64,000 nt of DNA from Rhodanobacter denitrificans (GTDB lineage: Bacteria; Pseudomonadota; Gammaproteobacteria; Xanthomonadales; Rhodanobacteraceae): assembly GCA_017848855.1 (NCBI GenBank), contig JAFIHF010000072.1, positions 1 through 64,000 of the forward strand, read 5' to 3'. Below the pieces are notes generated by a model. That model saw only the letters and a list, made by a program, of their open reading frames with translations, had not been told where the DNA came from and searched no databases. Positions 33,251-61,322 of this stretch are shown in pieces. The position numbers and the translations under genes are program-made. Position 1 is the stretch's first letter; the number at the start of each line of letters is the position of its first letter.

Positions 33251-33600
33251 TTTCGCAAGCGACAAAGCGATTTCGGTCGCCTGCCGGCGCCCGAGCCACC
33301 TTTATTTGCTGGCCCACGCCACCGCCGGGAGCGGTGGCGAACGGCGAAGCCGGCCCGAAGGGCGGAGGGCAGGATGCCCGGAGTCAAGAAAGGTGGCCCA
33401 ACGAAATGGCCTCGTTCAATCCGCCGACCCTACAAGCAGGCAGTGTCGAGGGCGTTGGACCAACGCTCGCCGACACGTCCCCCACAGCGGCCACCCCGCG
33501 ACGTATCTGGAAACTGAGGGCCGGGACGAAAAGCCGTCGTCGCCCCAGCGAACGCTGGGGCCCAGCGCCTCTGCTTTCGTGAGCGCGGGGTTGCGCGGTT
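33251..33600. repeat. Long composite repeat E1 (single-arm copy)
   Basis: Begins with the terminal module CGCAAGCGACAAAGCGATTT and CTGCCGGCGCCCGAG. Hairpin arms GCCACCTTT (33295-33303) and AAAGGTGGC (33389-33397) follow, with a nested module of about 70 bp in the loop, then CGAAATGGCCTCGTTCAATC up to GCGACGTATCTGGAAACTGA. From the hairpin to the end it matches the reverse complement of the right half of E4 (61130-61322). A half paired-hairpin repeat lies at 33531-33575. No credible gene. Confidence 0.75.
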
Positions 33601-33637
33601 TCCCGGATGTCACTCATGCAATGCAGAGAGCGTTGCG

Positions 33638-34276
33638 ATGACTACGCGCCCCCTCGCCATCTTCGGCGGCACCTTCGACCCCATCCACATCGGCCACCTC
33701 ACCGTGGCGTGGGAGGCGGCGGAGTTGCTGGATGCGGAAGTGCGCCTGATGCCGGCCAACGTGCCGCCGCACCGCTCATCGCCGCAGGCCACTCCCGCCG
33801 AGCGGGTGGCGATGTTGCGCGCGGCGCTGGCCGGGCAGTCGCGGCTGGTGCTGGATGCGCGCGAACTGGAGCGTGACGGACCGTCGTACACCATCGACAC
33901 CTTGCGCGAGCTGCGCGCAGAACAGGGCGAGCGGCCGCTGGTGCTGCTGCTCGGCGCCGATGCCTTCGCGGGACTGCCGACGTGGAACCGCTGGCGCGAG
34001 CTGTTCGACTTCGCGCATATCGGCGTGCTGAGCCGACCTGGTGTGCAAGTCGCGCGATCCGCGGAGCTGGATCAGGAAGTCGCCATGCGCCGCGTCGACG
34101 ACGTGGCCGCCTTGCGCGCCATGCCCTGCGGCAAGCTGATCGAACTCGCCGTCACTCCGCTGGAAATCTCCGCTACCCGCATCCGCGAACTGCTCGCCGC
34201 GGGGCGCGATCCGCGTTACCTGCTGCCGGCGGGTTTGTTCGACGATCCGGAGTTGTTGCGGCCTTATCGGCGTTGA
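33638..34276 (+). CDS. nadD: Nicotinate-mononucleotide adenylyltransferase
   Basis: A 212-residue nucleotidyltransferase that makes nicotinate adenine dinucleotide in NAD synthesis. The N-terminal ATP-binding motif is FGGTFDPIHIGHLTVAWEA (GxFxPxHxGH). Substrate segments are LMPANVPPHR and GPSYTIDTLRELR. The second ATP motif is ISATRIRELLAAGRD (SxTxxR). The ATG at 33638 starts right at the family N-terminus. It is usually followed by rsfS, which here lies about 8 kb away. Confidence 0.95.
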   Translation: MTTRPLAIFGGTFDPIHIGHLTVAWEAAELLDAEVRLMPANVPPHRSSPQATPAERVAMLRAALAGQSRLVLDARELERDGPSYTIDTLRELRAEQGERPLVLLLGADAFAGLPTWNRWRELFDFAHIGVLSRPGVQVARSAELDQEVAMRRVDDVAALRAMPCGKLIELAVTPLEISATRIRELLAAGRDPRYLLPAGLFDDPELLRPYRR

Positions 34277-34353
34277 TCTGAAATCACGCCGCGCTTGAGC
34301 CGAATGGCGCGTGTAAGCGAGTTCTTATGATCCGGGTGCTGATGGACCGAGTA

Positions 34354-34737
34354 TCAAGAAGAGCTTCGTGCTTTTTGCACGCGAGCCCAGACTTCAGGTG
34401 TGCTGCTTTGCCAAACGCCACCCAATAGGCGCCGAAATGAAGGATTGCGTCTTGATTCTTCTTCAATGCGATCAATGAACTCAGGTCCGCGATAGTGGAT
34501 CAGATCTTCAAGTGGCCCGGCAGCAAGAATGCCTTTCACATCGGCAGGTGGATCGCGTGCCAATACCGCAAGAATGGCCGCCCAGCAATCTTCCGGCGTT
34601 ACGGATTCATTCCCAGGAAACATGAAGTTTTCCACGGCCCACCACAGCGTGTCTTGGGTGTTCGGCGACACGCGGGTTCGTTGCCATTCAATGTAGGCAG
34701 TGGCCCAAGCCTCGATTTCATGGTGCGACATTGTCAT
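34354..34737 (-). CDS. Hypothetical protein, DUF6869-like
   Basis: 127 residues from ATG 34737, which follows GGCGAA; the open frame extends to 34908 but that part includes an msrB-like fragment in another frame. Visible pattern: EIEAWATAYIEWQRTRVSP, CWAAILAVLARDPPADVKG, LAAGPLEDLIHYRGPEFIDR and RRNPSFRRLLGGVWQSS. This resembles the small helical DUF6869 family of unknown function, often found as scattered accessory genes. Base composition is visibly lower in GC than the neighbouring genes, suggesting transfer. Confidence 0.7.
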   Translation of the reverse strand: MTMSHHEIEAWATAYIEWQRTRVSPNTQDTLWWAVENFMFPGNESVTPEDCWAAILAVLARDPPADVKGILAAGPLEDLIHYRGPEFIDRIEEESRRNPSFRRLLGGVWQSSTPEVWARVQKARSSS

Positions 34738-34826
34738 TTCGCCAGCGTAGCCTCCCGTGCCATCGTCTGGTGAGCTTTGCTTCGCGTCAAGATTTGGCGC
34801 GTGTTCGAAGGTGGACGCGAGCAGAT

Positions 34827-34880
34827 TCATCCAGTCCGTACCACGAAGCGCAAAGCCACCAAATTCATGCAAGAACGCAC
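34827..34880 (-). pseudogene. Remnant of an msrB 3' end
   Basis: One minus-strand frame reads CMNLVALRFVVRTG and stop at 34827-34829. The intact MsrB downstream in genome order ends CMNSVALRFVARIG and stop. The two DNA segments match by eye at about 80 percent over some 50 bases. Only this tail is present. It flanks the left end of composite repeat E2, while the complete msrB flanks the right end. Confidence 0.6.
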
Positions 34881-34902
34881 CTGATTTCCCATCTGCCGCC
34901 AG

Positions 34903-35645
34903 TTTCAAAGCGGTTTCGAGCCGCTGCCGCGGCCCGAGTTACTTCTCCTTTGCTTGTCCAAAGGAGAAGTAACCAAGAGGAAACGACACCCCGATGGCGC
35001 GCCCTCCGGGCATCCTGCCCTGCGGGTGCGCGGGCGGGTTACGGGGTTTTTCGATGGGACTCCTGTCCCGGCGAAAAACTGGCCCGCATCCGTGCGGGCC
35101 ATCCTGCGGACTTTCCTCCACCCGCCCGCCGCGCCATAGGGGCCCCGGGTGAAGCAGCGCGCTCCCAGCGCGCAGAAGCAACAGCCAGAGCAAGGCCAAG
35201 AGCAAAGCCAAGCAAAGCCGAAGCGCGCGCCGCACCAACCCCCTCTCCCCCAAGCTCCGCTTGGGGGAGAGGGTCGGGGTGAGGGGGCTTTGGCTTCTGC
35301 GCGCAGGAGCGCGCCGCTTTTCCAGGGGGCCCCTCGGCGGCGGTGAGGCGTGGACGAAAAGGCCGCGCAGCGGGCATCGCCAAGGATGGCGATGCCTTTT
35401 CGACCGGACAGGAGTCCGGCCGAAAAGCCCGGCCACGGCTCACGGACTTTCCGTCCATGGATGGACGGAAAGCGCCGCCGCGGGGTGTCGTTTCCTCTTG
35501 GTTACTTCTCCTTGACTCCGGGCATCCATGCCCTCCGCCCTTCGGGCCGGCTTCGCCGTTCGCACGCGCTCCTGCGCGTGCGTGGACAAGCAAAGGAGAA
35601 GTAACTCGGGCGCCGGCAGGCGCACGAAACCGCTCTGTTCCTTGC
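34903..35645. repeat. Long composite repeat E2 (two-arm copy)
   Basis: Left terminal module around 34903-34937, then hairpin TTACTTCTCCTTTG (34939-34952) and CAAAGGAGAAGTAA (34959-34972), then CCAAGAGGAAACGACACCCC. A middle part includes a CCCTCTCCC palindrome near 35242-35285. The right half mirrors it: GGGGTGTCGTTTCCTCTTGG, then a hairpin with arms 35502-35513 and 35593-35604 whose loop holds a nested module, then CTCGGGCGCCGGCAGGCGCA and CGAAACCGC. Frames through it are conserved between copies but have no known homology. Confidence 0.8.
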
Positions 35646-35721
35646 GACAAAACAGCAAACGATCAGATGGAACACAAGGCTACGCCAGTCACGACCGCGC
35701 TGCGCACGACAGCACCCATCG

Positions 35722-36339
35722 TCACCCAATCCGCGCCACAAACCGCAACGCCACCGAATTCATGCAATACCGCAGGCCAGTCGGCGGCGGCCCGTCGTTG
35801 AACACGTGGCCGAGGTGACTGTTGCAGCCGGCGCAGCTGATCGCGATGCGTTCCATGCCGAAGCTTGCGTCGCGGATTTCGATCACGTTGCGCTTGGCGA
35901 TGGGGCGCCAGAAGCTGGGCCAGCCAGTGCCGGAGTCGAATTCGGTGGCGGCGTCGTAGAGCGCGGTGGCGCAGGCGATGCAACGGAACAGGCCGGGCTG
36001 CGCCGGGCGTTCGTGCGGGCCGCTGAAGGCGCGTTCGGTGCCGTCGCGGCGCATCACCTCATAGGCCAACGGCGTGAGGCGCGCGCGCCATTGCGCGTCG
36101 GTCAGCACCAGCCGCTGCACCTTGCAGGGGCCGACGTCGCGGCCGTCGTCGGCGTAGCACTCCAGCAGCACCTCGCCGGGCGGAGTGTGGACCAGCGCGG
36201 GCAGGCCGCCCGCGGCGCCGGCGGCGAGCAGGCGGGGCAGGGCGAAGCTGCCGCCGACCGCGAGCAGGGCGCTACCGCCGAGCGCGGCGCGCAGGAAACG
36301 GCGGCGGTCCATTGCGAGGGATTCGTCGATGCGGGACAT
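35722..36339 (-). CDS. msrB: Tat-exported peptide-methionine (R)-S-oxide reductase MsrB
   Basis: 205 residues. A twin-arginine signal (MDRRRFLRAALGGSALLAVG) sends it to the periplasm folded. The MsrB domain has structural zinc cysteines in CIACATAL and CAGCNSHLGH, the family HVFNDGPPPTGLRYCMNS with the catalytic cysteine, and GTGWPSFWRPI. It reduces methionine-R-sulfoxide in exported proteins. The start follows GGAGGCTCCC. It is transcribed after dipZ on the same strand; DipZ can supply electrons across the membrane. A fragment resembling its 3' end lies at 34827-34880. Confidence 0.93.
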   Translation of the reverse strand: MSRIDESLAMDRRRFLRAALGGSALLAVGGSFALPRLLAAGAAGGLPALVHTPPGEVLLECYADDGRDVGPCKVQRLVLTDAQWRARLTPLAYEVMRRDGTERAFSGPHERPAQPGLFRCIACATALYDAATEFDSGTGWPSFWRPIAKRNVIEIRDASFGMERIAISCAGCNSHLGHVFNDGPPPTGLRYCMNSVALRFVARIG

Positions 36340-36370
36340 GGGAGCCTCCGGTAGTGCGAAGGAAGGCCTG

Positions 36371-36446
36371 GTAGGAGCGCACCCTGTGCGCGAATGCTCT
36401 GGCGTTGATCGGAGCAAAAGCCTTCGCGCACAGGGTGCGCTCCTAC
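36371..36446. repeat. GTAGGAGCGCACC-type hairpin
   Basis: Arms GTAGGAGCGCACCCTGTGCG (from 36371) and CGCACAGGGTGCGCTCCTAC (ending 36446), with a one-base slip in the lower stem. It lies between dipZ and msrB and is the same family as 1076-1148. Confidence 0.85.
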
Positions 36447-36456
36447 GGGAAGCGAT

Positions 36457-38184
36457 TCAGCCGAACGTGAACGCGTAGGCGCACACGCCGGGATCGAGGA
36501 AGGTGATGGTGAACGTGCGTTCACCGTTGCCGTGCGCCTGGCGCACCAGCTGGTACAGGCGCTGCGCGGTGATGGTGCCGCGGCCGTCGGCGTCGGTGTC
36601 CATGCCGTGGTCGGCGCCGGGCGCGTGACCATCGAGCGCGATGCGGAAGCGTACCGGTTTGCCGTCCTTGCCCGGGCCCAGCACCAGGTGCAGGTCGCGG
36701 CCGCGGAAGCGGTAGCTGATGCTGCCGTTCGCCGCATCCAGCGTGGCGTCCTGCGCGTGCACGGTCCAGCGGCCGGCCAGTGCCCACTGGTTGGCGATCA
36801 GCGTGGCGGGCGTGTGGTAGTCGAACGTGTCGTCGTGCGCGACTTGGCCGCCGGCGAAGTGCTCGGCGCGCGCGTAGCCCACGTAGGTTTCCGGCGAGCG
36901 CTGTGGGTCGCCCGAGCTGGCCGCCTGCGCGCCCTTCGCGCCGGGCTGCACGTAGCCGCCGGGCAGATCCTTGTAGCCGGCTTCGCTGAGCAGCTGGCGG
37001 ATCGTGTCCTCGCCCTCGTGATAGCCGCCCTCGCCGAAGTAGTGGGCACGGATGCGGCCCTGCGCGTCGATGAAGTAATCCGCGGGCCAGTATTCGTTGT
37101 TGAAGCCCTGCCAGATCGCGTAGTTGGCATCCAGCGCCACCGGGTAGGTCACGCCCAGCCGCTGCACCGCCGCTGTCACGTTGGCCGGATCCTTCTCGAA
37201 CGCGAACTCGGGCGCGTGCACGCCGATGACGACCAGGCCGTGGTCCTTGTACTTGTCATGCCAGGCTTCGACATAGGGCAGCGAGCGCAGGCAATTGATG
37301 CAGGAGTAGGTCCAGAAATCCACCAGCACCACCTTGCCGCGCAGTTTTTCGCGGGTGAGCGTGCCGCTGTTGAGCCAGCCGGTGGCGCCGGCCAGCGTGG
37401 GCAGCGTGCCTTCCACCGGCAGAGCCTCGCCGGGTTTCGGCGCGGGTGCTGCCACCGCGGCGGGCATCGGCCGCACGGCGTCGATCAGCTGCTGCTCGAT
37501 GCGGTTGCTGCCGGCCAGCGAGACGCGGGTGAGCACGCCGGTGTCCACGCCCGAGGCGATCGCGGCCACGCCGGCCAGCACCAGCACGCCCAGCGCGCGG
37601 CGCACCCACTGGCCCGCGCCCAGCGAGCGCTTCATCAGCGCAAACACCTTGCCGCCCACCGCCAGCGCCAAGGCCAGCGAAGTCGCCGCGCCCAGCGCGT
37701 AGGTGAGCAGCAGCAAGGTGGTGGTGACGCTGGCGCCCTTGAGCGCGGCGCCGGTCAACAGCAGGCCCAGGATCGGTCCCGCGCACGGCGCCCACAGCAG
37801 GCCGGTGGCTATCCCCAGACCCACCGCGCCCCAGATCGATCCGCCCTCGCCATCGGTGCGCTGCGACAGCCGGTTGCCCAGCGCCACGAACGGCCGCGTC
37901 AGCCATTCGGCGACGTGCGTGGAGAGCAGGGTGAGACCGAGCAGGGCCAGCACCACCAGCGCCAGCGCGCGGCCGTACTGGTTCGCGTGCACCGCCCAGC
38001 CACCACCCACCGCCGCCAGCGTGGCGACCAGGGCGAAGGTGGCCGCCATGCCGATCAGCATCGGCAGTCCGCTCTTCAGGAACGGGCGGTCGGCGCGGGC
38101 GAACACGAACGGCAGCACCGGCAGGATGCAGGGGCTGAGGATGGTGAGCACGCCGCCGAGGTAGGCAAGGATCAGCAGGAGCAT
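36457..38184 (-). CDS. dipZ: DipZ: CcdA-like membrane domain fused to thioredoxin domain
   Basis: 575 residues in three parts. Residues of about 1-230 are a CcdA/DsbD-beta type membrane domain with redox cysteines in LSPCILPVLPF and LLWAPCAGPILG. About 265-420 is a TlpA-like thioredoxin domain with the active site CINC (Cys295, Cys298, in WTYSCINCLRSLPYVE). The C-terminal 150 residues (YVGYARAEHFAGGQ, YRFRGRDLHLVLGP) are the DipZ carbohydrate-binding-like domain. It carries electrons from cytoplasmic thioredoxin to the periplasm. It precedes msrB on the same strand and diverges from the sigF-like operon. Confidence 0.92.
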   Translation of the reverse strand: MLLLILAYLGGVLTILSPCILPVLPFVFARADRPFLKSGLPMLIGMAATFALVATLAAVGGGWAVHANQYGRALALVVLALLGLTLLSTHVAEWLTRPFVALGNRLSQRTDGEGGSIWGAVGLGIATGLLWAPCAGPILGLLLTGAALKGASVTTTLLLLTYALGAATSLALALAVGGKVFALMKRSLGAGQWVRRALGVLVLAGVAAIASGVDTGVLTRVSLAGSNRIEQQLIDAVRPMPAAVAAPAPKPGEALPVEGTLPTLAGATGWLNSGTLTREKLRGKVVLVDFWTYSCINCLRSLPYVEAWHDKYKDHGLVVIGVHAPEFAFEKDPANVTAAVQRLGVTYPVALDANYAIWQGFNNEYWPADYFIDAQGRIRAHYFGEGGYHEGEDTIRQLLSEAGYKDLPGGYVQPGAKGAQAASSGDPQRSPETYVGYARAEHFAGGQVAHDDTFDYHTPATLIANQWALAGRWTVHAQDATLDAANGSISYRFRGRDLHLVLGPGKDGKPVRFRIALDGHAPGADHGMDTDADGRGTITAQRLYQLVRQAHGNGERTFTITFLDPGVCAYAFTFG

Positions 38185-38385
38185 GGCGAGGGTCCAGTGG
38201 GGAGGTGTGCCGGTGATTCGCCGTCGCTGCGTTGGCGGTTACATCGCCCGGTGCGAGGTAACCGCATCGACGGATGCAGCGAATCGCCGGATGAAACCCA
38301 TGCACGGAACGATACGCCCTTGACCGCCGACGGCAGCTTGGTACTAGATGGCGGCCTCGCCCCGTCACCGGATTGCCGCGCCGCC

Positions 38386-38967
38386 GTGCCTGCCGAACCC
38401 GCCAGCGCCAGCGAACAGGCCGAGCGCCAGCGCGCCGCGTGGATGGCCGCCGCGCAGGCCGGCGACCGCCGCGCCTACGAGCGCGTGCTGGCCGATTCGG
38501 TGGCGTTGATCCGCGCGGTGGCGCGGCGCCAGGGCGTGGCGACGGATGCGTTGGACGACGTGGTGCAGGAGACCCTGCTCACCGTGCACCGCGTGCGTCA
38601 CACCTACGACCCGGCGCGTTCCTACGACGCCTGGCTCGCCGCGATCGCCAGTCGCCGCGCGATCGACGCGCTGCGCAGCCACGGCCGGCGCGAGCGCCGC
38701 GAGCTGCACGACGAGTTCGCGCTGGACCGCCACCCCGGCCGCGACGACGCCAGCGCGGACGCCGAACGCCGGCAGCAGGCGCGGCGCCTGCGCGAGGCGA
38801 TCGCGCAACTGCCGCCCGGCCAGCGCGAGGCGGTGGAGCAGCTGGGCCTGCGCGAGCAATCGCTGGCCGAGGCCGCCGCGCACACCGGCCGCAAGGCCGG
38901 CGCGCTGAAAGTGAACCTGCACCGCGCATTGAAGGCCTTGCGCGGCCGCCTGCACGGAGAAGACTGA
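38386..38967 (+). CDS. sigF: ECF sigma factor, SigF-like (NrsF-controlled)
   Basis: About 193 residues. Region 2: WMAAAQAGDRRAYERVLADS, ALDDVVQETLLTVHRVRHTY, YDAWLAAIASRRAIDALRSH. Region 4: LREAIAQLPPGQREAVEQLG, then AHTGRKAGALKVNLHRALKA. The next gene encodes an NrsF (DUF1109) anti-sigma, so this is a SigF-type sigma of periplasmic stress response. The start is uncertain: GTG 38386 is used, TTG 38320 is possible, and no in-frame ATG precedes WMAAAQ. An inverted pair GGTTAC and GTAACC near 38238-38264 lies upstream. Confidence 0.88.
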   Translation: MPAEPASASEQAERQRAAWMAAAQAGDRRAYERVLADSVALIRAVARRQGVATDALDDVVQETLLTVHRVRHTYDPARSYDAWLAAIASRRAIDALRSHGRRERRELHDEFALDRHPGRDDASADAERRQQARRLREAIAQLPPGQREAVEQLGLREQSLAEAAAHTGRKAGALKVNLHRALKALRGRLHGED

Positions 38968-38970
38968 GCC

Positions 38971-39624
38971 ATGGCCGAGCCGCGCTCCAACGACAGCCTG
39001 ATCGCCGCGCTCGGCGCCGAACTGGTGCCGGTGCGGCGCCTGCTGCCGCCGTGGCTGCGCACCGTCGGCTGGCTGGCGCTGGTGGCCGCGTTCGCGCTGC
39101 TGCTGCTCGCGCATTACGGTGACGCGCCCATGCTGCGCCGCTGGGCCGGCGCGCCGGATCTCGCCTGGGCCGCGCTGGGCGCGGTGCTCACCGCGGTTGC
39201 GGCGGCCTGGGCCGCGTTCACCCTCGCCGTGCCGGGGCGTTCGCGCGCCTGGGCCTGGTTGCCGCTGCCGCCCGCCTTGTTGTGGATCGGCGCCAGCGGC
39301 CTCGGCTGCCTGCGCACCTGGCTGGCGCCGGGCACCAGCATCGCCACGCTGCACCAGTCCGCCGACTGCCTCGTCTTCATTGTCGGCTTCTCGATCCCGC
39401 TGTCGGCGCTGATGGTGTGGCTGCTGCGCCGCGCCTGCCCGCTGCGCCCGCTGCTCACCGCGCTGCTGGTGGGCCTGGCCAGCGCCGCTGCTTCGGCCAG
39501 CCTGCTGGAGATCTGCCACGCCTTCGACGCCGCCGCCACCGACCTGCTCACCCACGCGCTGGCGGTGGGCATCGTGGTCGCGGCGAACGCGGCGATGGGC
39601 GGCAGGCTGCTGGCGCCGAAGTAA
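38971..39624 (+). CDS. nrsF: NrsF (DUF1109) membrane anti-sigma factor
   Basis: 217 residues with six predicted transmembrane helices, e.g. VGWLALVAAFALLLLA, LAWAALGAVLTAVAAAWAAF, LVFIVGFSIPLSALMVWLL and LLTALLVGLASAAASASLL. The N-terminal RSNDSLIAALGAELVPVRRL and paired cysteines (LGCLRTWL, ADCLVF) are typical. In Caulobacter NrsF holds SigF inactive at the membrane until a periplasmic redox or metal signal. It begins three bases after the sigma stop. Confidence 0.9.
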   Translation: MAEPRSNDSLIAALGAELVPVRRLLPPWLRTVGWLALVAAFALLLLAHYGDAPMLRRWAGAPDLAWAALGAVLTAVAAAWAAFTLAVPGRSRAWAWLPLPPALLWIGASGLGCLRTWLAPGTSIATLHQSADCLVFIVGFSIPLSALMVWLLRRACPLRPLLTALLVGLASAAASASLLEICHAFDAAATDLLTHALAVGIVVAANAAMGGRLLAPK

Positions 39625-39697
39625 CCCGCGCCGGCCTTGCGGCGAAGCAACGGGTGGAGGCCCCGCCTCCGTTCCCTACCTCACGCAAGGATTTCCC

Positions 39698-40012: not shown

Positions 40013-40022
40013 TGCATCTTCG

Positions 40023-40075
40023 ATCCGTTCGCCCTGCGGCTTCGACCCATGGGCCTGCGCCCGGGGCGAACGGAT
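40023..40075. terminator. Hairpin after the MXKDX gene
   Basis: Perfect 12-bp inverted repeat ATCCGTTCGCCC (40023-40034) and GGGCGAACGGAT (40064-40075), ten bases after the stop. The T tract is poor (GTTTGCTGC), so factor-dependent termination or message protection is as likely as intrinsic termination. The GTTCGCCC core recurs at 62739-62841. Confidence 0.5.
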
Positions 40076-42607: not shown

Positions 42608-42715
42608 GGTTGCCGGGTGCTCGGTGGCGCGGAGTGCGCTCCATAGCCGTTGCGCTGGTTTGCTGCTGCGAGTTTTTTGCTGACGACAGGGCGGTTTCGC
42701 ACCATTTGGCGTTGT

Positions 42716-43432
42716 CGCAATCGACGAAGCGGTTTCGTCCACCTGCCGGTGGCCGAGCTACTTCTCTTTTGCTTGTCCAAAAGAGAAGTAGCCAAGAGAA
42801 AACGACACCCCGATGGCGCGCCCTCCGGGCATCCTGCCCTGCGGGTGCGCGGGCGGGTTCCGGGGTTTTTCGACGGCACCTCCGTGTGCCGGCGAAAAAC
42901 TGGCCGGCATCCCTGCCGGCCATCCTGACGGACTTTCCTCCACCCGCCCGCCGCGCCATAGGGACCCCGGGTGAAGCAGCGCGCTCCTGCGCGCAGAAGC
43001 AACGGCAACTGCAACAGCAAGAGCACCCCACCCCGACCCTCCCCTGCAAGCAGGGGAGGGAGACAGCAGCTGTTCCGCGGTCTGCTGTTCACCTCTCCCA
43101 CTTGTGGGAGAGGGGTGGGGGAGAGGGGCTTTGCTCGGCTTTGCTTGGCTTCTGGCGCGCAGGAGCGCGCCTGCTTTTCCCGGGGCCCCTGGGCGGCGGT
43201 GAGGCGGGGACGAAGAGGCCGCGCAGCGGGCGTTGCCATGGAGGGCAACACCTTTTCGCGCGGGCAGGAGCCCGCTCGAAAAGCCCGGCGCCGACTCACG
43301 GACTTGCCGGGCAGGACGCCCGGCAAGCGCCAACCGGGGTGGCCTTTCTCTTTGGTTCCTTTCTCTTTGGCCACGCAAAGAGAAAGGAACTCGGGCGCCG
43401 GCAGGCGCACGAAACCGCTTTGTTGCTTGCGA
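42716..43432. repeat. Long composite repeat E3 (two-arm copy)
   Basis: Left terminal module TCGCAATCGACGAAGCGGTT and CACCTGCCGGTGGCCGAG, then hairpin GCTACTTCTCTTTTG (42757-42771) and CAAAAGAGAAGTAGC (42778-42792), then CCAAGAGAAAACGACACCCC. The middle holds CCCTCTCC-type palindromes (43026-43130). The right arm hairpin is GTTCCTTTCTCTTTG (43355-43369) and CAAAGAGAAAGGAAC (43376-43390), then CTCGGGCGCCGGCAGGCGCA and CGAAACCGC. It fills most of the 1 kb between rsfS and rlmH; 43440-43600 also carries smaller palindromes. Confidence 0.82.
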
Positions 43433-43622
43433 AGTCCCCAGCAGAACTTTGTGGAGAAGCCACGCACGCCAACGAGCGTAATCGCGAGCCCCGCCCCCTC
43501 ACCTCAATCCTCTCCTCGCTCCCCAGAGCGGCGGCCATCCATGGCCGCTCCCCGCGTGCCCCAAAGGGGAGAGGAAGCGAATGCGGGCGCTGCGCGCCAG
43601 CTTTTGCTCTTGGACAGCGATG

Positions 43623-54982: not shown

Positions 54983-55027
54983 CCAGGCGGTGCGCCTGCG
55001 CGGGCATCACGCCGCTGCGTGTCGTCC

Positions 55028-56614
55028 CTACCGATAGTTGAGATCCGGCGAGGCGAGCAGGAAGGTGTTCCACTCCTGCTGCGAATTCGCCTTGGCCAGC
55101 GCATCGCGCGTAGGTGCGGAGAGATGCGGTTCGATCGCGTCGTAGTACAGCCGCGTGGCGAGCATCGGGAAGCCGGCCTCGCGCGTCTTGCTGCCGGGCG
55201 GGGTGAACAGCTGGGTGTTGCCGTTGCCGATGGCGGCGGCGATGTCGAAGCGCTTGGACAGCTGGCCCGAGCCGGTCCAGCTGGCGCCATCCAGCGGCCA
55301 GCCGTCGGGGGTGATGCGGCCGTACAGCGGTTCGCCGAGCTGGTCGAGCCAGTACACCAGCGGCAGCGCATTCGCCACCGGCTTGTCGTCGTAGGCGAGG
55401 CGCACGGCGGACACCGTGAAGCGGGTGGGGTCCATGAACTGGCGGCCGCTGGCGAGCAGTTCGGGCGAGTCGAACAGCGTGCGCAGCACGGCGGCGATGT
55501 TGCCGTCGGTCTGGCGGAAGGTCTGCGCCATGCGCGCCACCAGCGCGGGCGGCGGCGTGTCGGCCACGAAGTATTGCGCCAGTTTGCGCGAGACGAATTG
55601 CGCGCAGGCGGGCTGGCTGACGATGAGGTCCACCGCCTGCTTCACCTCGTCGTAGCCGCGGCCCTTGATGCGTTGGCCGAGGAAAACCTTGTCGCGGAAA
55701 TCGTGCCGGTAGGGGTTGAACTCGAACAGGCCGTGGCGCACCACCAGCGGAGCAGCCTTCGCGTTGAAGCGCTGCGGCGGGCCGCCGACAGGCGCGATGC
55801 CCACGCCGGTGAGGATCAGCGCCAGTTGCTGCACGTCCTGCTGGGTGTAGCCCGAGCCCACGCCCAACGTGTGCAGCTCCATCAGCTCGCGCGCGTAGTT
55901 CTCGTTGACGTGGCCCTTGGCGTTCTGCGCGTTGTCCAGGTACTCCAGCATCGCCGGGCTTTCCAGCGTGGCCATCACGAGATCCTTGAACTTGCCCAGC
56001 GCATGCGGGCGGATCACGTGCTGCTCGTAGTCGGCCAGCTCCCAGCGGATGCGACCCTTGGGCGCGTACACGCTGAAGTGGTTGAGCCAGAACCACACCA
56101 ACTGCTCCTTGAGCTGGTTGGGGCCGTACACCGCCTGCAGCAGCTCGGCTTGCCGCGCCTGCTGCATCAGCTCGTTGCCGTGCTGCTGCCAGGCCTTGTT
56201 CGCGGCGTCCTTGCCTGGCCCGGCGGGCATCGTCTTGGCCTGCTGCTGGGCGTCGTGCAGGTCGGCGAGCAGGCGCGGCATCGGCGTGGACACCGCCTCG
56301 AAAGCGTGGATCTGGCTGGCGATGGCCGGCGGCAATGCACCGCGCACATGATCGGACAGCTGCGCGTCGAGCAGCCCCGCACGCCCCAGTTCGCGATAAC
56401 GCGCCACGTCTGCGCTGTCGATGCCGAAGCCGTCGCGGCGCAGCCAGGTGAGGTCGTCGCTGGTGAGGCTGGCTCCCGTTGCTGCCGCATTGGAATGCGA
56501 GGGTGCATTCGCGCAGGCGGCGAGCAGCAGCATCAACAAAGCCAGCAGCACGATGTTTGCATGATGCTGGCTGCGTGACAGGGCCGGCGGAGAAAAGAGA
56601 TGCATCAGTCGCAT
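55028..56614 (-). CDS. DUF1800 family lipoprotein (copy A)
   Basis: 528 residues. Lipobox-like LLLAACAN after a hydrophobic signal. DUF1800 pattern: DLTWLRRDGFGIDSADVARY, LKEQLVWFWLNHFSVYAPKG, VIRPHALGKFKDLVMATLES, NENYARELMELHTLGVGSGY and LYGRITPDGWPLDGASWTGS. The family is of unknown function and nearly always paired with DUF1501 genes. A paralogue of the same length is at 58304-59890. The start overlaps the end of the small upstream gene; ATG 56605 is an alternative that would make a TGATG junction. Confidence 0.88.
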   Translation of the reverse strand: MRLMHLFSPPALSRSQHHANIVLLALLMLLLAACANAPSHSNAAATGASLTSDDLTWLRRDGFGIDSADVARYRELGRAGLLDAQLSDHVRGALPPAIASQIHAFEAVSTPMPRLLADLHDAQQQAKTMPAGPGKDAANKAWQQHGNELMQQARQAELLQAVYGPNQLKEQLVWFWLNHFSVYAPKGRIRWELADYEQHVIRPHALGKFKDLVMATLESPAMLEYLDNAQNAKGHVNENYARELMELHTLGVGSGYTQQDVQQLALILTGVGIAPVGGPPQRFNAKAAPLVVRHGLFEFNPYRHDFRDKVFLGQRIKGRGYDEVKQAVDLIVSQPACAQFVSRKLAQYFVADTPPPALVARMAQTFRQTDGNIAAVLRTLFDSPELLASGRQFMDPTRFTVSAVRLAYDDKPVANALPLVYWLDQLGEPLYGRITPDGWPLDGASWTGSGQLSKRFDIAAAIGNGNTQLFTPPGSKTREAGFPMLATRLYYDAIEPHLSAPTRDALAKANSQQEWNTFLLASPDLNYR

Positions 56615-56883
56615 GTGCGGCCTTCGTCGGGAATTGTATGTTTACGACCGAACATCGCGAATTCGCCGACGAGTATCAGCAGCAGACCGATCAACCAGAG
56701 CGGTGCCCGAAACAGCAGGAACACCACGAGCATGAACGACAAGTGGTTGGCATACAGGTCGGGACTGGGTGGCCCGGAAAGCGCCGACCATATGAACCAT
56801 GCGCAATGGGTTGCCATCCCGAGAGCCCAGAGGATCACGGTGGCCGCATAGATGCGCTGAGGTGGCCGAAACGTCCTGTACAT
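56605..56883 (-). CDS. Small two-helix membrane protein
   Basis: 92 residues. Two hydrophobic stretches: IYAATVILWALGMATHCAWF and LSFMLVVFLLFRAPLWLIGL. A possible third hydrophobic part ends in VGEFAMFGRKH. No family recognised. It sits between DUF1501 and DUF1800 copy A, 31 bases after the former and overlapping the latter, so coupling supports a real gene. Codon use is less GC-biased than its neighbours. Confidence 0.6.
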   Translation of the reverse strand: MYRTFRPPQRIYAATVILWALGMATHCAWFIWSALSGPPSPDLYANHLSFMLVVFLLFRAPLWLIGLLLILVGEFAMFGRKHTIPDEGRTCD

Positions 56884-56914
56884 GTCGGTGGTCTGGCATC
56901 CAGGTCGGGTCAAT

Positions 56915-58114
56915 CTACACCAGCCGCAAATCGCGCGGCTTCGCCTGCGGAAACACCGTCTGCAACTGGCTGGCGCTCAAGCCCCACAGTTGCGCGAACA
57001 GCCCGCCGAGTACGTCGCGGTAGTCGTTGAGGATCGGGTAGTCGCGGTTCTGGAACAGGTTGGCCTGCGTCACCGCCATCTGCTCGCCGGCGATGCGGCC
57101 GCCGGCGACCTTGCCGCCCAGCACCCAGTGCACGGTGCCGTGGCCGTGGTCGGTGCCGTGGTCGCCGTTTTCGCGGAAGGTGCGGCCGAACTCGGAGAGC
57201 ACCACCACGGTGGTGTCGTTCCAGGCGTCGCCCAGCGCGTCGGCGTAGGCGGCGAGGCCTTCGCCGAGATTCTTCAGGTTGTTGGCGAGGCCGCCCTTGG
57301 TGCTGCCCTGGTTGACGTGGGTGTCCCAGCCGCCCACGTCGACGAAGCCGAGGCGGTACTGCTCGCGCATCAGGGTGGCGATGCGCCGCGTCTCGGCGGC
57401 GAAGCTGCGCGCGCCGGGCGCGCCGCGGCTGGCGGCCACCATCTCGTCGCGCAGATCCTTGGAGATGCTCTGCGGCAGGGCGAGGCCGTCGGCGCTGGCC
57501 TGGGCCAGCGCGGTGCCCTTGTACATGCCGGCGAGGATCGCCGCCTGCCGTTCGTCGAAATGCGCCTTGGGCTCGGCCTTCAGCGCGATGTTGGGGATGT
57601 CGCGCGCGGCGCCCTGGAAGGACAGCGGCAGGTTGTCGGTGAACGCGATCGCCGGCACGCCGGTGAGCAGGCCGGAGAGCCGCGCGAGGAAGCCGGAGCG
57701 GTAGTTGCCGTTCGCGCCCACCGGCTCGCCGCGTTCGATGTGGTCCTGCGTCTCGAAGTGGCTGCGCGAGAGGTCGTTGGTGCCGGCGAACGGGATGAAG
57801 GCGAGCTGCTTCTTCTGCCACAGCGGCAGCAGCGTATCGCGCACCACCGGGCTCAGGCCCCAGTCCGCGTCCAGCGCCACGGCGCTGTCGGGATCGTTGG
57901 CGTCGGGGCGCTTGATCGCGAGTGTGGGCCGCGAGGCGTAGTAGAAATCGCTGCCGGTCGGCACCAGCAGGTTGTTGCAGTCGTAGCCGCCGCGCAGGAA
58001 TACCAGCAGGAAGCGCGGCGTGTTCGCCGGCGCGGCGAACAGCCGGCCGGAGAACGACAGCGTGGAAGCGGCGGCTGCGCCGGCGGCGGCAAGCAGGAAT
58101 TCGCGGCGGTTCAT
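56915..58114 (-). CDS. DUF1501 family Tat-exported protein
   Basis: 399 residues. Tat-like signal MNRREFLLAAAGAAAASTLS. Alkaline-phosphatase/sulfatase-like DUF1501 pattern: FLLVFLRGGYDCNNLLVPTG, RSHFETQDHIERGEPVGANG, VDVGGWDTHVNQGSTKGGLA, VVLSEFGRTFRENGDHGTDH and GHGTVHWVLGGKVAGGRI. The Asp/His residues suggest a metal-dependent hydrolase core, but function is unproven. It lies between two DUF1800 genes. Confidence 0.92.
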   Translation of the reverse strand: MNRREFLLAAAGAAAASTLSFSGRLFAAPANTPRFLLVFLRGGYDCNNLLVPTGSDFYYASRPTLAIKRPDANDPDSAVALDADWGLSPVVRDTLLPLWQKKQLAFIPFAGTNDLSRSHFETQDHIERGEPVGANGNYRSGFLARLSGLLTGVPAIAFTDNLPLSFQGAARDIPNIALKAEPKAHFDERQAAILAGMYKGTALAQASADGLALPQSISKDLRDEMVAASRGAPGARSFAAETRRIATLMREQYRLGFVDVGGWDTHVNQGSTKGGLANNLKNLGEGLAAYADALGDAWNDTTVVVLSEFGRTFRENGDHGTDHGHGTVHWVLGGKVAGGRIAGEQMAVTQANLFQNRDYPILNDYRDVLGGLFAQLWGLSASQLQTVFPQAKPRDLRLV

Positions 58115-58177
58115 GGTGGGTACCTCGGTGGTGGTTTGGCGCATCCTGCCTGCGGCAGTGCACCAGGCTTGAATGGC

Positions 58178-58253
58178 GTCATTCCCGCGAAAGCGGGAAT
58201 CCATTTCGGGCTAGTCGAAGATCAACATGGATGCCCGCGTTCGCGGGCATGAC
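58178..58253. repeat. GTCATTCCCG paired-hairpin repeat
   Basis: ATTCCCGCGAAAGCGGGAAT and ATGCCCGCGTTCGCGGGCAT face each other between GTC at 58178 and GAC at 58253, in the gap between DUF1800 copy B and DUF1501. Best preserved member of the family in this window. Confidence 0.9.
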
Positions 58254-58303
58254 GTCTCGGTGGGTGGCTTGGGTACGGAACATTGCTGCGCGTAGTGAGT
58301 GGG

Positions 58304-59890
58304 TCAGCGGTAATTGAAGTCGGGCGAAGACAACAGGAAGGTATTCCACTCCATCGGCGACTTCGCCTTGGCCAGCGCGTCGCGGGTGGCGTCGGAGAGC
58401 CTCGGCGCGATCGCGTCGCGGTACAGCGCGGAGCCTTGCAGGTCGGGCGCGCCGGGCGGCGGATCGTTCGTGGTGTTCGCGCCGCCGTCGTCCACGAACA
58501 GCCGGTTGCGGCCGCTGCCGATCACGCGGGCGAAGTCGAAGCGCTTGCTGAGCTGGCCCGAGCCGGTCCAGCTCGCCGAATCCAGCGGCCAGCCGTCCGG
58601 CGTGATGCGGCCGTACAGCGGCTCGCCCATCGCGCGCAGCCAGTTCACCAGCGGTTCGGCGTTGGGGATGGGCTGGCCGTCGTAGGTGAGGCGCATCGCG
58701 GAAACCAGGAAGCGCATCGGATCCTTGAACTTGTGTCCGCCGACTGCCGCAGCTTCCGGCGACAGCAGCATGGTGCGCACTACCGCCGCGATGTCGCCGT
58801 CGGTGCGCTGGAAGGTCTGCGCCATCGCGTCCACCAGGGCGGGCGAGGGCTGGTCGGCGATGAAGTATTCGGCCAGCTGCTGCGAGACGAAGTGCGCGCA
58901 CGCGGGTTGCCGCACGATCAGATCCACCGCCTGCTCGATCTCGGTATAGCCGCTGCCCCTGATCGTCTGGCCGAGGAAAGTCTTGTCGCCGAAGTCGTGC
59001 TGGTTCGGGTTGAACACGAACAGGCCGTCGCGCACGAAGCCGGGGCGCCTGCGGCGCATGCCGCGCTCGGCGAACTTCGGCGGCAGCAGGCCGGCGCCGG
59101 TCAGCACGCGCATCAGCTGCTGCACATCGGCCTGGGTGTAGCCCGAGCCCACGCCCAGCGTGTGCAGCTCCATCAGCTCGCGCGCGTAGTTCTCGTTGGT
59201 CTTGCCCTTGACGTTGTGCACGTTGTCGAGGAACACCAGCATGGCCGGGCTCTTCAGCGTGGCCAGCACGAGATCCCTGAACTTGCCCAGCGCATGCGGG
59301 CGTATCACGTTTTCCTCGTAGTCGGCCGCGAACGCGCGCACCGGCCCCTTGTTCGCGTACACGCTGAAGTGGTTGAGCCAGAACCACACCAGCTGTTCCT
59401 TGAGCTGGTCGCCGCCGTAGACCGCGTGCAGCAGCTCGGCCTGCGCGGCCTGCTGTTCGAGCCCGCGCCGGTACTGCGCAAGCGCCTTCTTCGCGGCGTC
59501 TTTCGCCGCGCCGGCAGGCGTGTCCTTGTACTGCTTCTGGCGGTCGCGGAAATCCGCCCACAGCGCGGGCAGCGGCGTGTTCACCACCGGCAGGGCGCGG
59601 AGCTGTGCGGCCACCTGCGGCGGCAGCGTGTCGTCGCTGCCGGCGAGCTGCTCGTCGAGGAAGCGCTCGCGGCCGAGCTGGCGATAGCGCGCCAGCGTGG
59701 CGCTGTCCAGGCCGAAGCCGTCGCGGCGCAGCCAGGCGATGTCCGACAGGCTCAGCCCGTCCACCTTCGCGGTGACGGTGGCGGCAGGCAGGCGTTGCGG
59801 CGCGGCCTGGCCCGCGCAGGCCAGCGCGGGCAGGCAGCCCAGCAGCAGGCCGAGAGCGAGACTGCGGCAACGTATCGGTGCGGCGGGCAT
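58304..59890 (-). CDS. DUF1800 family exported protein (copy B)
   Basis: 528 residues, same as copy A and clearly paralogous: DIAWLRRDGFGLDSATLARY, LKEQLVWFWLNHFSVYANKG, VIRPHALGKFRDLVLATLKS, NENYARELMELHTLGVGSGY and LYGRITPDGWPLDSASWTGS. The N-terminus RSLALGLLLGCLPALACAG is a signal, probably cleaved after ACAG, with a less clear lipobox than copy A. Start at 59890; upstream in-frame ATGs are unlikely. First gene of the DUF1800-DUF1501-DUF1800 minus-strand group. Confidence 0.88.
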   Translation of the reverse strand: MPAAPIRCRSLALGLLLGCLPALACAGQAAPQRLPAATVTAKVDGLSLSDIAWLRRDGFGLDSATLARYRQLGRERFLDEQLAGSDDTLPPQVAAQLRALPVVNTPLPALWADFRDRQKQYKDTPAGAAKDAAKKALAQYRRGLEQQAAQAELLHAVYGGDQLKEQLVWFWLNHFSVYANKGPVRAFAADYEENVIRPHALGKFRDLVLATLKSPAMLVFLDNVHNVKGKTNENYARELMELHTLGVGSGYTQADVQQLMRVLTGAGLLPPKFAERGMRRRRPGFVRDGLFVFNPNQHDFGDKTFLGQTIRGSGYTEIEQAVDLIVRQPACAHFVSQQLAEYFIADQPSPALVDAMAQTFQRTDGDIAAVVRTMLLSPEAAAVGGHKFKDPMRFLVSAMRLTYDGQPIPNAEPLVNWLRAMGEPLYGRITPDGWPLDSASWTGSGQLSKRFDFARVIGSGRNRLFVDDGGANTTNDPPPGAPDLQGSALYRDAIAPRLSDATRDALAKAKSPMEWNTFLLSSPDFNYR

Positions 59891-60054
59891 GCGTCCTACT
59901 CCGGCGGGGGTGTCGGGTGGCTTCAACGGCGAGGATGCCAAAGCGGATGACAGCGACATGGCGACGCATCCGGTGGATTCGCCGCGATTCATCATTCGCA
60001 ATCTCTTGCGCTGCCGCGCGCCGGTTACCATGCGCTCCCCGCCGGAGCGATGCG

Positions 60055-60663
60055 ATGCCCAAGACCTACGACCGCGCCTATTTCGACAAGTGGTACCGCG
60101 ACCCTGCGCACGCGGTGGGTTCGCCCGCCGAGCTGAAGCGCAAGGTGGCGATGGTGGTGGCGCAGGCGGAGTACTACCTCGGCCGGCCGATCCGCAACGT
60201 GCTGGACGTGGGCTGCGGCGAGGGCACCTGGCGCGCGCCGCTGCGCGCGCTGCGCCCCGGCCTCGACTACCGCGGGCTGGACGCCAGCGAATACGTGGTG
60301 GCGCGCTACGGGCGCAGCCGCAACCTCGGTCTCGCGCGCTTCGGCCAGCTGGAATACCTGCGCTTCGACACGCGCTTCGACCTGATCGTGTGCACCGACG
60401 TGCTGCATTACCTGAAGCCTGCGGAGATCCGCGCGGGTCTCGCCGGCATCGTCGACATGCTCGAGGGCATCGCCTTCCTCGAAGTGTTCACCAGCCGCGA
60501 TGACGTGGACGGCGACCGCCACGGCTTCGTGGCGCGCGCGCCGGCGTGGTACCTGCGCGAGTTCGGCAAGGTGGGGCTGCTGCCGTGCGGGTCGCATTGC
60601 TACCTCGGGCCGCGATTGGGGCGGCATATCGCGGCGTTGGAGAGGGCGCAGATGCCGGTGTGA
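60055..60663 (+). CDS. Class I SAM-dependent methyltransferase
   Basis: 202 residues. N-terminal YDRAYFDKWYRDPAHAV; SAM motif I VLDVGCGEGTWRAPLRAL; post I DYRGLDASEYVVARYG; motif II FDLIVCTDVLHYL. The C-terminus includes APAWYLREFGKVGLLPCGSH. The substrate is unknown; small-molecule type. Start at 60055 on family fit. Divergent from DUF1800 copy B. Confidence 0.85.
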   Translation: MPKTYDRAYFDKWYRDPAHAVGSPAELKRKVAMVVAQAEYYLGRPIRNVLDVGCGEGTWRAPLRALRPGLDYRGLDASEYVVARYGRSRNLGLARFGQLEYLRFDTRFDLIVCTDVLHYLKPAEIRAGLAGIVDMLEGIAFLEVFTSRDDVDGDRHGFVARAPAWYLREFGKVGLLPCGSHCYLGPRLGRHIAALERAQMPV

Positions 60664-60721
60664 GCTTTCTCTCTCTTCCACAGGTGGAAGAGTGGCAAGG
60701 GAGAGGGACTCTTCCATCTCT

Positions 60722-61322
60722 TGCCGCAAGCGACAAAGCGGTTTCGAGCCGCAAGCGACAGAGCGGTTTCGTCCACCTGCCGGTGGCCGAGCTACTTCTC
60801 TTTTGCTTGTCCAAAAGAGAAGTAGCCAAGAGAAAACGACACCCCGCGGCGCCGCTCTCCGGGCATCCTGCCCTCCGAGTCCGTGAGTCGGTGCCGGGCT
60901 TTTCGAGCGGGCTCCTGCCCGCGCGAAAAGGCGAGTCCATCCATGGCCTCGCCCGCTGCGCGGCCTCCTCGTCCCCGCCTCACCGTCGCCGAGGGGCCCC
61001 GGGAAAAGCAGCGCGCTCCTGCGCGCAGAAGCAACAGCAAGATCAACAGCACCCCACCCCAACCCTCCCCTGCACGCAGGGGAGGGAGACACGACGCCAG
61101 GCGGCGAAGCACCACGAAGCTTTGTTCCTCAGTTTCCAGATACGTCGCGGGGTGGCCGCTGTGGGGCGACGTGTCGACGAGCGTTGATCCAAACCCCTCG
61201 ACACAGCGGGCTTGTAGGGCCGGCGGATTGAACCAGGCCATTTCTCTTGGTTACTTCTCTTTGGGCCAGCAAAGAGAAGTGACTCGGGCGCCGGCAGGCG
61301 ACCGAAACTGCTCTGTCACTTG
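60722..61322. repeat. Long composite repeat E4 (two-arm copy)
   Basis: Left: GCAAGCGACAAAGCGGTTTC (partly doubled), CACCTGCCGGTGGCCGAG, hairpin GCTACTTCTCTTTTG (60791-60805) and CAAAAGAGAAGTAGC (60812-60826), then CCAAGAGAAAACGACACCCC. The middle has AAAAGCAGCGCGCTCCTGCG and a CCCTCCCC palindrome. The right half (61130-61322) is the inverse of E1: TTTCCAGATACGTCGCGGGG, hairpin TTACTTCTCTTTG (61251-61263) and CAAAGAGAAGTGA (61270-61282), CTCGGGCGCCGGCAGGCGAC, and ACTTGCG. Fills the 710 bp between the methyltransferase and porin genes. Confidence 0.82.

What the first reader, a model, noticed from the sequence alone, without database searches (positions are those of the whole stretch)
33251..61322. 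Family of long composite intergenic elements (E1-E4)
Four non-coding blocks (33251-33600, 34903-35645, 42716-43432, 60722-61322) share ordered modules: a terminal module with AAGCGGTTTCG and CCTGCCGG, a strong hairpin, CGACACCCC, a GC-rich middle with CAGCGCGCTCCTGCGCGCAG, and in three copies an inverted right half. They are far longer than REP or BIME units and encode no transposase. They look like a modular, non-autonomous element or a large structured RNA family.
Basis: partly seen in the sequence, partly recalled or inferred. Interest (0 to 1): 0.8.

Follow-up and report, generated by a model that had tools for sequence, protein, structure and literature searches.

The report
Triple-helix-capped CsrA-decoy RNA repeats
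Dozens of short, non-protein DNA repeats scattered through this bacterium's genome look like back-to-back genes for folded RNAs that carry docking hairpins of the kind bound by the regulator CsrA/RsmA and end in an unusual three-stranded knot, so they may soak up that regulator.

Summary
The repeats are real. E2, E3 and E4 are full elements; E1 is one half. The genome (Rhodanobacter, inferred) holds dozens of copies; the end module occurs in 67 of 398 genomes drawn across the phylum. Each element is two halves facing outward. Each end is a module that, read outward, folds as an H-type pseudoknot whose pyrimidine loop matches, as a third strand, the purine strand of its stem: a predicted triple-helix pseudoknot. 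Stem, loop and third strand covary (mirror match 96%, above every shuffle, here and in other families).

In Rhodanobacter, Pseudomonas and some other families the interior is a branched fold whose loops carry GGA on the outward strand (265 of 326 loops; 5 inward), in the form of CsrA/RsmA sites. Rfam's TwoAYGGAY (RF01731, same clan as RsmY) matches such halves in 5 of 20 distant loci, always outward, and 18 of 30 TwoAYGGAY loci carry the module just 3'. The GGA-class genomes tested have csrA; the csrA-less genomes whose interiors I read are of another class.

Best reading: bidirectional, mostly 3'-side RsmA/CsrA-binding RNA elements with a protective triple-helix end. Transcription, CsrA binding, triple formation and the spreading mechanism are untested.

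The parts
34894..35649 (.). E2: full element, L half + middle + inverted R half; right end module has an insert of about 70 nt in the hairpin loop
   Evidence: HMM end pair; repeats D2/D5/D7/I5
42713..43433 (.). E3: full element, L half + middle + inverted R half
   Evidence: HMM end pair; both outward halves fold better than all 200 shuffles, z -3.7 and -4.1
60748..61326 (.). E4: full element, R half + middle + inverted Q half; the left end carries a tandem second end unit (from about 60724)
   Evidence: HMM end pair; sequence
33251..33520 (.). E1: solo half element of type Q, one end module only
   Evidence: HMM hit 33251-33400; I4 and I18 to E4
42757..42808 (-). E3 left end module, outward strand (-): stem S2 42757-42770/42779-42792, loop 42771-42778, third strand L1 42794-42802, box (S1 partner) 42803-42808
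   Evidence: sequence; covariation of this fold
43339..43390 (+). E3 right end module, outward (+): S1 43339-43344 / 43369-43374, L1 pyrimidine strand 43345-43353, S2 43355-43368 / 43377-43390
   Evidence: sequence
34938..34973 (-). E2 left end module, S2 hairpin (outward strand -)
   Evidence: A1 alignment
60791..60826 (-). E4 left end module, S2 hairpin (outward strand -)
61253..61280 (+). E4 right end module (type Q, shorter S2), outward strand +
43154..43171 (+). GGA hairpin, loop with closing pair CAGGAG, E3 right half
43232..43249 (+). GGA hairpin, loop CATGGAGG, E3 right half
43260..43275 (+). GGA hairpin, loop CAGGAG, E3 right half
43303..43327 (+). GGA hairpin, loop CAGGACG, E3 right half
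42874..42891 (-). GGA hairpin, loop CACGGAGG, E3 left half
42901..42922 (-). GGA hairpin, loop AGGGAT, E3 left half
42979..42994 (-). GGA hairpin, loop CAGGAG, E3 left half
35299..35314 (+). GGA hairpin, loop CAGGAG, E2 right half
35373..35396 (+). GGA hairpin, loop AAGGAT, E2 right half
35404..35419 (+). GGA hairpin, loop CAGGAG, E2 right half
35447..35472 (+). GGA hairpin, loop ATGGAT, E2 right half
35056..35069 (-). GGA hairpin, loop CAGGAG, E2 left half
35080..35101 (-). GGA hairpin, loop ACGGAT, E2 left half
35157..35173 (-). GGA hairpin, loop CTGGGAG, E2 left half
60907..60922 (-). GGA hairpin, loop CAGGAG, E4 left half
61011..61026 (-). GGA hairpin, loop CAGGAG, E4 left half

Best explanation
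Each element is a back-to-back pair of RNA modules read outward toward its two ends. Whichever flanking gene's transcript runs through it, the 3' half of that transcript shows an array of hairpins with GGA loops (binding sites for RsmA/CsrA dimers, as in CsrB/RsmZ and the TwoAYGGAY motif), followed by an H-type pseudoknot in which a pyrimidine loop lies as a third strand in the major groove of a purine/pyrimidine stem, and then a short hairpin. The GGA array titrates or recruits RsmA/CsrA; the triple-helix pseudoknot probably protects the 3' end from 3'-5' exonucleases. Shown here: the anatomy, the covariation of stem, loop and third strand, the one-strand GGA loops, the TwoAYGGAY matches and their strand, and the gene context. 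Inferred: transcription, triple-helix formation, CsrA binding, 3'-end protection, and any effect on the cell.
For: End module: stem S2 98.8% paired cells, 10 of 14 pairs changed on both sides; hairpin H1 97.5%, 5 of 8 (65 of the 81 candidate modules). Loop-box pairing: pair 49-78 is CG 30/UA 19/GC 16, no mismatch in 65. The third strand mirrors the purine strand at 549 of 572 positions; shuffle mean 401, best of 5000 458; shifted by 1-3 it gives 33-68%. Outside the genus, 79 distinct modules (88 parsed of 92 full-model hits): 569 of 590 mirrored, best of 300 shuffles 472; loop-box score 4.65, best shuffle 3.52. GGA loops: R halves 152 of 199 outward, 5 inward; L halves 113 of 127, 0 inward; more distant genomes 87 of 179, 0 inward. 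Interior folds covary: R 15 of 53 pairs (34 of 48 sequences), L 11 of 56 (29 of 36). RF01731 at gathering score in 5 of 20 loci, 6 hits, all outward; 18 of 30 RF01731 loci (7 of 12 genomes) have the end module within 100 bases 3' on the same strand. E3's left half, outward strand, matches RsmW below threshold (31 bits against 52, E 0.003). csrA: found in the GGA-class genomes tested and in 10 of 10 further RF01731 genomes. Of the 20 element-bearing genomes without a csrA match I read interiors in 16; none is GGA class as a whole. Context: 36 codirectional, 23 convergent, 1 divergent of 60, against 126/36/45 of 207 background gaps (divergent p 6e-5). Wobbles: outward G-U against A-C 38:4 in S2, H1 8:1, but see against.
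Against: No transcript or binding data. No sigma-70-like promoter in E2 or E3 (E4 not scanned). The wobble bias is mostly one recurring stem position: 32 of the 38 and 7 of 10 in A1; elsewhere S2 is about even, the loop-box helix goes the other way (0:3), the R interior is even (12:11 by hand), the L interior leans outward (27:6 by hand). Purine tracts resemble each other anyway: a direct-copy reading of the linker scores 481 of 585. Type Q halves (E1, right half of E4) lack a regular GGA array. f14, f15 and f45 have csrA but mostly the other interior, f2 is mixed, and csrA-less genomes show stray GGA loops (f16 4 of 22, f43 1 of 6). The csrA association is weak by family (p 0.03-0.04, families sorted by hand, kinship uncorrected). 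The window's own copies miss Rfam's thresholds; in E3 another family, SorX, scores a like E-value (0.002) on the inward strand. The 5' half of a through-transcript shows the complementary strand, unexplained.
Confidence: 0.57

Rival explanations
1. A MITE-like non-autonomous transposon whose inverted ends are folded DNA signals for a transposase acting in trans; the RNA-like covariation reflects single-stranded DNA hairpins.
For: Inverted ends 402-807 bp apart in the 50 listed full copies; high copy number; sites differ between species 93.8% alike: of 20 loci 5 are empty in the second species and 1 is a collapsed end palindrome; modular halves and tandem end units.
Against: No clean target duplication seen; the exact pattern of one common form is in 0 viral contigs, no phage match for two queries, plasmid matches in nine rows only, and the four records opened look chromosomal; the same ends persist across many families; GGA loops on one strand only are not explained. 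A transposase was not searched for.
Confidence: 0.21
2. DNA-level intrastrand-triplex repeats, relatives of BoxC/PIT elements, acting on replication or genome stability through purine-motif DNA triplexes on the inward strand.
For: The module has the Y-R-R' order of class II intrastrand triplexes; a true BoxC element lies beside E1 (33101-33136; pattern from PMC4666352, section 16). Loci vary between species. Outside one stem position the wobble pairs do not favour either strand.
Against: GGA loops and Rfam orientation point to the outward strand; the paper states that purine-motif triplexes cannot form in RNA while pyrimidine ones can (PMC4666352, introduction). The loop-box helix and GGA interior have no role in this model.
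Confidence: 0.11
3. 3'-UTR mRNA stabilisers or processing sites like REP/BIME, with no link to CsrA; GGA loops recruit another protein or reflect loop stability.
For: Location downstream of at least one gene in 59 of 60 cases; the triple-helix end is shared with families whose interiors lack GGA.
Against: Loops of the form ANGGAN or AGGAN with variable N on covarying stems fit the CsrA/RsmA consensus A(N)GGA (PMC4066749, one passage); TwoAYGGAY was independently proposed as CsrA-binding (PMC4333381, passages).
Confidence: 0.11

Closest known systems
TwoAYGGAY RNA (Rfam RF01731, clan CL00106)
   Same: Two hairpins with A-Y-GGA-Y loops on the same strand; matches the interior of halves in Pseudomonas and other families at gathering score; predicted CsrA-binding (PMC4333381, passages)
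   Different: The Rfam consensus shown ends before the pseudoknot; here the RNA comes in outward-facing pairs and many copies; E2 and E3 halves carry 3-4 GGA hairpins and score below threshold
CsrB/RsmY/RsmZ/RsmW sRNAs
   Same: Arrays of GGA hairpin loops; RsmW is reported as 3'-UTR derived (PMC4950607, abstract and passages); E3 matches RsmW weakly on the outward strand
   Different: Those are single or few genes (recalled); these are dispersed repeats in inverted pairs; the two RsmW loci fetched carry no end module
BoxC / PIT / TM_ECO intrastrand triplex repeats (PMC4666352)
   Same: Pyrimidine, purine and mirror third strand in one strand; intergenic; not tied to mobile elements; locus variability
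   Different: G/C-rich, about 37 nt, no loop-box pseudoknot or GGA interior described in the sections read; ours is A/G-rich and the end of a larger element
Telomerase-RNA-type H-type pseudoknots with major-groove triples (recalled, not tested)
   Same: Loop 1 runs parallel to the purine strand of stem 2
   Different: Bacterial, dispersed, longer stem; no sequence relation tested
REP/BIME and MITEs (recalled; PMC2817692 and PMC10969869 seen only in search listings)
   Same: Intergenic, inverted, high copy
   Different: Much longer, internally structured, no RAYT or transposase link shown

Membership tests
TwoAYGGAY RNA (RF01731) | Covariance-model score at or above gathering (43 bits) | tested here: inconclusive
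   Met for halves in 5 of 20 distant loci; not met in the window, and no match in the own genome
TwoAYGGAY RNA (RF01731) | Adjacent hairpins with A-N-GGA-N loops on one strand | tested here: met
   E2 and E3 right halves carry four GGA hairpins each on the outward strand, left halves three each; some loops are the shorter AGGA form
CsrA/RsmA-binding RNA | GGA in hairpin loops, conserved while stems vary | tested here: met
CsrA/RsmA-binding RNA | Binds CsrA/RsmA | not testable with these tools
   only indirect: csrA present in the GGA-class genomes tested
CsrA/RsmA-binding RNA | Is transcribed | not testable with these tools
   no RNA-seq held; no promoter-like site in E2 or E3
BoxC/PIT triplex element | Published G/C-rich pattern | tested here: not met
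   End modules are A/G-rich; the pattern is met by the neighbouring repeat 33101-33136
MITE | Terminal inverted repeats | tested here: met
   12 of 29 and 18 of 24 distant loci show the pair within 1 kb
MITE | Target-site duplication / clean empty site | tested here: inconclusive
   Empty sites exist but flanks are rewritten too
MITE | Cognate transposase | not tested
   no protein search was run for one
REP/RAYT | GTAG-tagged short palindrome with RAYT | tested here: not met
   End consensus is AAAGCGGTTTCG plus hairpin, not GTAG; RAYT not searched
Rfam families in general | Any family at gathering score in the window | tested here: not met
   0 matches in 64 kb

The most novel reading that the evidence does not exclude
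A genome-wide, self-dispersed RsmA/CsrA titration network: dozens of 3'-side cassettes that, transcribed from either side, each release a triple-helix-capped CsrA-decoy RNA, so that total transcription of the genome sets CsrA activity. The triple-helix pseudoknot would be a new, portable bacterial RNA 3'-end stability element, kept even where the GGA cargo has been swapped for another interior in csrA-less lineages.
Probability: 0.3. Interest if true: 0.92.

Novelty: new variant of a known kind. Interest (0 to 1): 0.76.

Why it matters
TwoAYGGAY has been a candidate RNA of unknown function since 2010, and intrastrand-triplex repeats have been reported with no assigned function beyond a link to genome instability. 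This ties the first to a covarying triple-helix 3' end and to a dispersed element architecture, points to the working strand, and gives direct tests (RsmA binding, RNA stability). If right, CsrA regulation in Rhodanobacter, Dyella and several Pseudomonas would involve many decoy sites spread over the genome rather than a few sRNA genes, and bacteria would have a natural triple-helix RNA 3'-end element.

Tried and rejected
Coding origin: 54 of 56 ORFs called inside elements score 15-39; two more (118, 275) reach in from outside; flanking genes have a median of 175. Stem and third-strand lengths vary together by single bases. I reject a protein. A first gene caller trained on all long ORFs called antisense frames and gave 20 'divergent' sites; discarded. 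The retraining set (8 ORFs) still holds three antisense frames, so context calls are approximate. Of the 60 context cases three are double counts from tandem ends (L012, L015, L025) and several are orthologues, so p values are optimistic; 7 more lay at contig edges and were left out.

Target-site duplication: orthologous sites in eleven congeners and a closer pair (93.8%) show presence/absence, but flanks are rewritten too. Of 20 loci in the closer pair 12 are occupied in both, 1 is a remnant, 5 are empty and 2 cannot be judged; L061 holds a copy matching better in the opposite orientation (89% against 73%). The 21st anchor was found but its locus was not fetched.

Rows dropped: searches left out 12 weaker or atypical full-model hits (536 of 552 mirrored, wobble 33:3); one search puts them back (569 of 590, 38:4), with 4 of 92 hits not parsed and 3 of 79 distinct modules with no mirror placement. 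One search's first parse of 42 distant modules gave 6:2. Paired ends: the inward-facing pair within 1 kb was found in 12 of 29 distant loci and 18 of 24 (places partly chosen for it); L123, L129 and L177 show the opposite arrangement.

RsmW as a member: two loci fetched, no end module. First pseudoknot columns were off by one (31.5% paired), corrected to 81.8% (core four pairs 255 Watson-Crick of 260). Rfam hits to microRNA families I take as chance. TwoAYGGAY loci without the module: 12 of 30 (L322, L325, L326, L328, L329, L334, L337, L338, L341, L344, L345, L348); those of G508 look like other sequence. Papers: searches listed no report that I recognised as inverted TwoAYGGAY repeats or this pseudoknot; passages on TwoAYGGAY in PMC7657543 and PMC11701678 speak of added base pairs only. 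The library lacks most subscription journals; the additional file of the 2010 survey and the original PIT papers were not read.
Full report
What is there. The four blocks belong to one family. An HMM of the end module places a + copy and a - copy at the two ends of E2, E3 and E4, and one copy at E1. In the own genome and its relatives 50 full elements of 402-807 bp were listed, a few counted twice because of tandem ends. BLAST with E2 gives 191 matching pieces in the own genome; with E3, 21 of 31 relatives match. Interiors fall into three main half types. The same pattern hits no viral contig.

The end module. Read inward it is: hairpin H1 with a TGCC/TGTC loop; a stem S2 with one pyrimidine and one purine strand; an 8-base loop; a purine linker; a box. 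Read outward this is an H-type pseudoknot: box (S1), linker (L1, now pyrimidine), S2, loop (S1 partner), S2. On 65 aligned modules H1 and S2 are 97.5% and 98.8% paired with many double changes. The loop pairs with the box through a four-pair core, with three pair types and no mismatch at one of its pairs. The linker is the mirror image of the purine strand: 549 of 572 positions, against at most 458 in 5000 shuffles and 33-68% when slid; counting each distinct strand-linker pair once it is 119 against a shuffle mean of 92 and maximum of 117. The linker also shortens when the stem shortens. Parallel U.A-U and C+.G-C triples on the outward strand, with L1 crossing the deep groove of S2, fit this (pseudoknot geometry recalled). 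A covariance model of the module found it in 67 of 398 genomes drawn across the phylum. In 79 distinct modules from outside the genus the mirror holds at 569 of 590 positions (best of 300 shuffles 472) and loop-box pairing scores 4.65 against at most 3.52 in shuffles (smaller sets agree). The inward-facing pair of ends was found within 1 kb in 12 of 29 and 18 of 24 distant loci; three loci show the opposite arrangement.

Which strand. A wobble is seen as G-U on the working strand and as A-C on the other. In S2 of distant modules the outward strand shows 38 G-U against 4 A-C, in A1 10:4 and in H1 8:1. But 32 of the 38 and 7 of the 10 lie at one recurring position, and elsewhere S2 is about even; the loop-box helix goes the other way (0:3) and the R interior is even (by hand), while the L interior leans outward (27:6 by hand). 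So wobble pairs alone are weak evidence; the strand rests mainly on the GGA loops and on Rfam's orientation below.

The interior. R and L halves form branched folds with 15 of 53 and 11 of 56 pairs supported by double changes; both outward halves of E3 fold better than all 200 shuffles. Stems vary but loops keep GGA on the outward strand: 152 of 199 (R) and 113 of 127 (L) outward, 5 and 0 inward. The forms are CAGGANG and CANGGANG and shorter AGGA loops; the CsrA/RsmA consensus is A(N)GGA (PMC4066749, one passage; the hairpin forms of CsrB and RsmE are recalled). In more distant genomes 87 of 179 loops are GGA outward and none inward, mostly in f1, f2, f17, f27 and f30, and in f20. Elsewhere the interior often carries instead a conserved AACTCGC...GCTCARACA motif.

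Link to a known RNA. Rfam finds nothing at threshold in the window, but among 20 distant loci TwoAYGGAY (RF01731) matches five, six hits, all on the outward strand and 5' of the end module (alignments). The reverse test: a search for RF01731 in 185 genomes of the class gave hits in 12 genomes; of the 30 loci fetched, 18, from 7 genomes, have the end module within 100 bases downstream on the same strand. At least six hit pairs in two genomes (G573, G071) face outward. So in these genomes TwoAYGGAY RNA leads into this pseudoknot. A 2010 survey lists TwoAYGGAY as a probable RNA, not cis-regulatory (PMC2864571, one table passage; Rfam labels it Cis-reg). A later paper proposed that it binds CsrA (PMC4333381, passages). 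E3's left half matches RsmW on the outward strand below threshold; E2 does not.

CsrA. csrA (PF02599) was found in 27 of 35, 9 of 21 and 10 of 10 genomes (one of the 35, G126, carries no element). Among element-bearing genomes it is missing from all 11 of f16 tested, three of f29, and single genomes of f31, f36, f43 and f44, and from two incomplete f49 genomes: 20 in all. I read interiors in 16 of these (not G049, G259, G394, G407); none is GGA class as a whole, though stray GGA loops occur (f16 4 of 22). The GGA-class genomes tested have csrA, and so do the ten further TwoAYGGAY genomes (G508's hits are doubtful), as predicted. Sorting families by hand (f34 and f49 unclear, f2 mixed but counted as GGA), 6 of 6 GGA families have csrA against 4 of 10 others (p 0.03; 0.04 with f34 added; no correction for kinship). 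Several csrA-bearing families use the other interior, so csrA permits but does not require GGA.

Context and mobility. Of 60 elements with two called neighbours, 36 lie between codirectional, 23 between convergent and 1 between divergent genes; background gaps are 126, 36 and 45 (Fisher 6e-5 and 0.001; cases not fully independent). So nearly all lie downstream of a gene, where read-through could transcribe them. Sites differ between species 93.8% alike; at one locus the copy fits better in the opposite orientation and one has collapsed to a palindrome of two H1 hairpins. Plasmid hits are few; the four records opened look chromosomal by gene content or size, such as P. multocida dapF. Two phage searches gave none. 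How copies spread is unresolved.

Interpretation. The most economical account is an RNA element: whichever way it is transcribed, the downstream half yields a GGA-hairpin array capped by a triple-helix pseudoknot. I infer RsmA/CsrA titration, or recruitment, plus 3'-end protection. BoxC/PIT repeats, which share the mirror principle (PMC4666352: abstract, passages, section 3 part 1, sections 15 and 16, section 20 part 1), lie beside E1 and are a related but distinct kind.

Limits. No expression or binding data; triple formation is inferred from covariation; families of most genomes are coded, not named; copy counts are BLAST or model hits, not curated.

Noticed in passing
window 33101-33136, 33198-33235 (+); 98-132 (-): BoxC/PIT-type G/C-rich intrastrand-triplex repeats; 33101-33136 fits the published TM_ECO pattern, the others resemble it. 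Similar repeats flank and sit inside many elements.
   Followed up: partly
L126, L127, L130, L131, L118, L121, L202 and others: A second interior class with conserved AACTCGC...GCTCARACA on the inward strand, in families with and without csrA; it might be a kink-turn-like motif (guess).
   Followed up: no
G011 C1:656564-659305, and the G014 and G006 orthologues: Orthologues of window 28905-31535 (leuS by recall, not searched) show a gap of 70-119 bases in the BLAST match near query position 2105, as if a small insert were tolerated.
   Followed up: no
window 42929-42941 (- strand): L halves read outward contain GGAGGAAAGTCCG, letters shared with a conserved RNase P RNA segment (recalled); no RNase P match appeared in Rfam, so probably chance.
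   Followed up: no
window 1061-1163, 36371-36454: GTAG-type palindromes (GTAGGAGCGCACCCTGTGCGCGAATG) in direct and inverted copies, likely REP elements (recalled type).
   Followed up: no
window 55019-60031: Two tandem similar genes, 77-84% alike in several blocks about 3290 bases apart (repeats D1, D3, D4, D9, D12).
   Followed up: no
L196 1747-1821 (-): Match to Burkholderia sRNA ncS54 (51.3 bits, gathering 43) near an end module in G350, a genome without a csrA match.
   Followed up: no
G000 contigs C1, C10, C14, C32, C37, C48: Several contigs of the draft genome begin inside or beside these elements, so copy number is probably underestimated and the repeats break assemblies.
   Followed up: no
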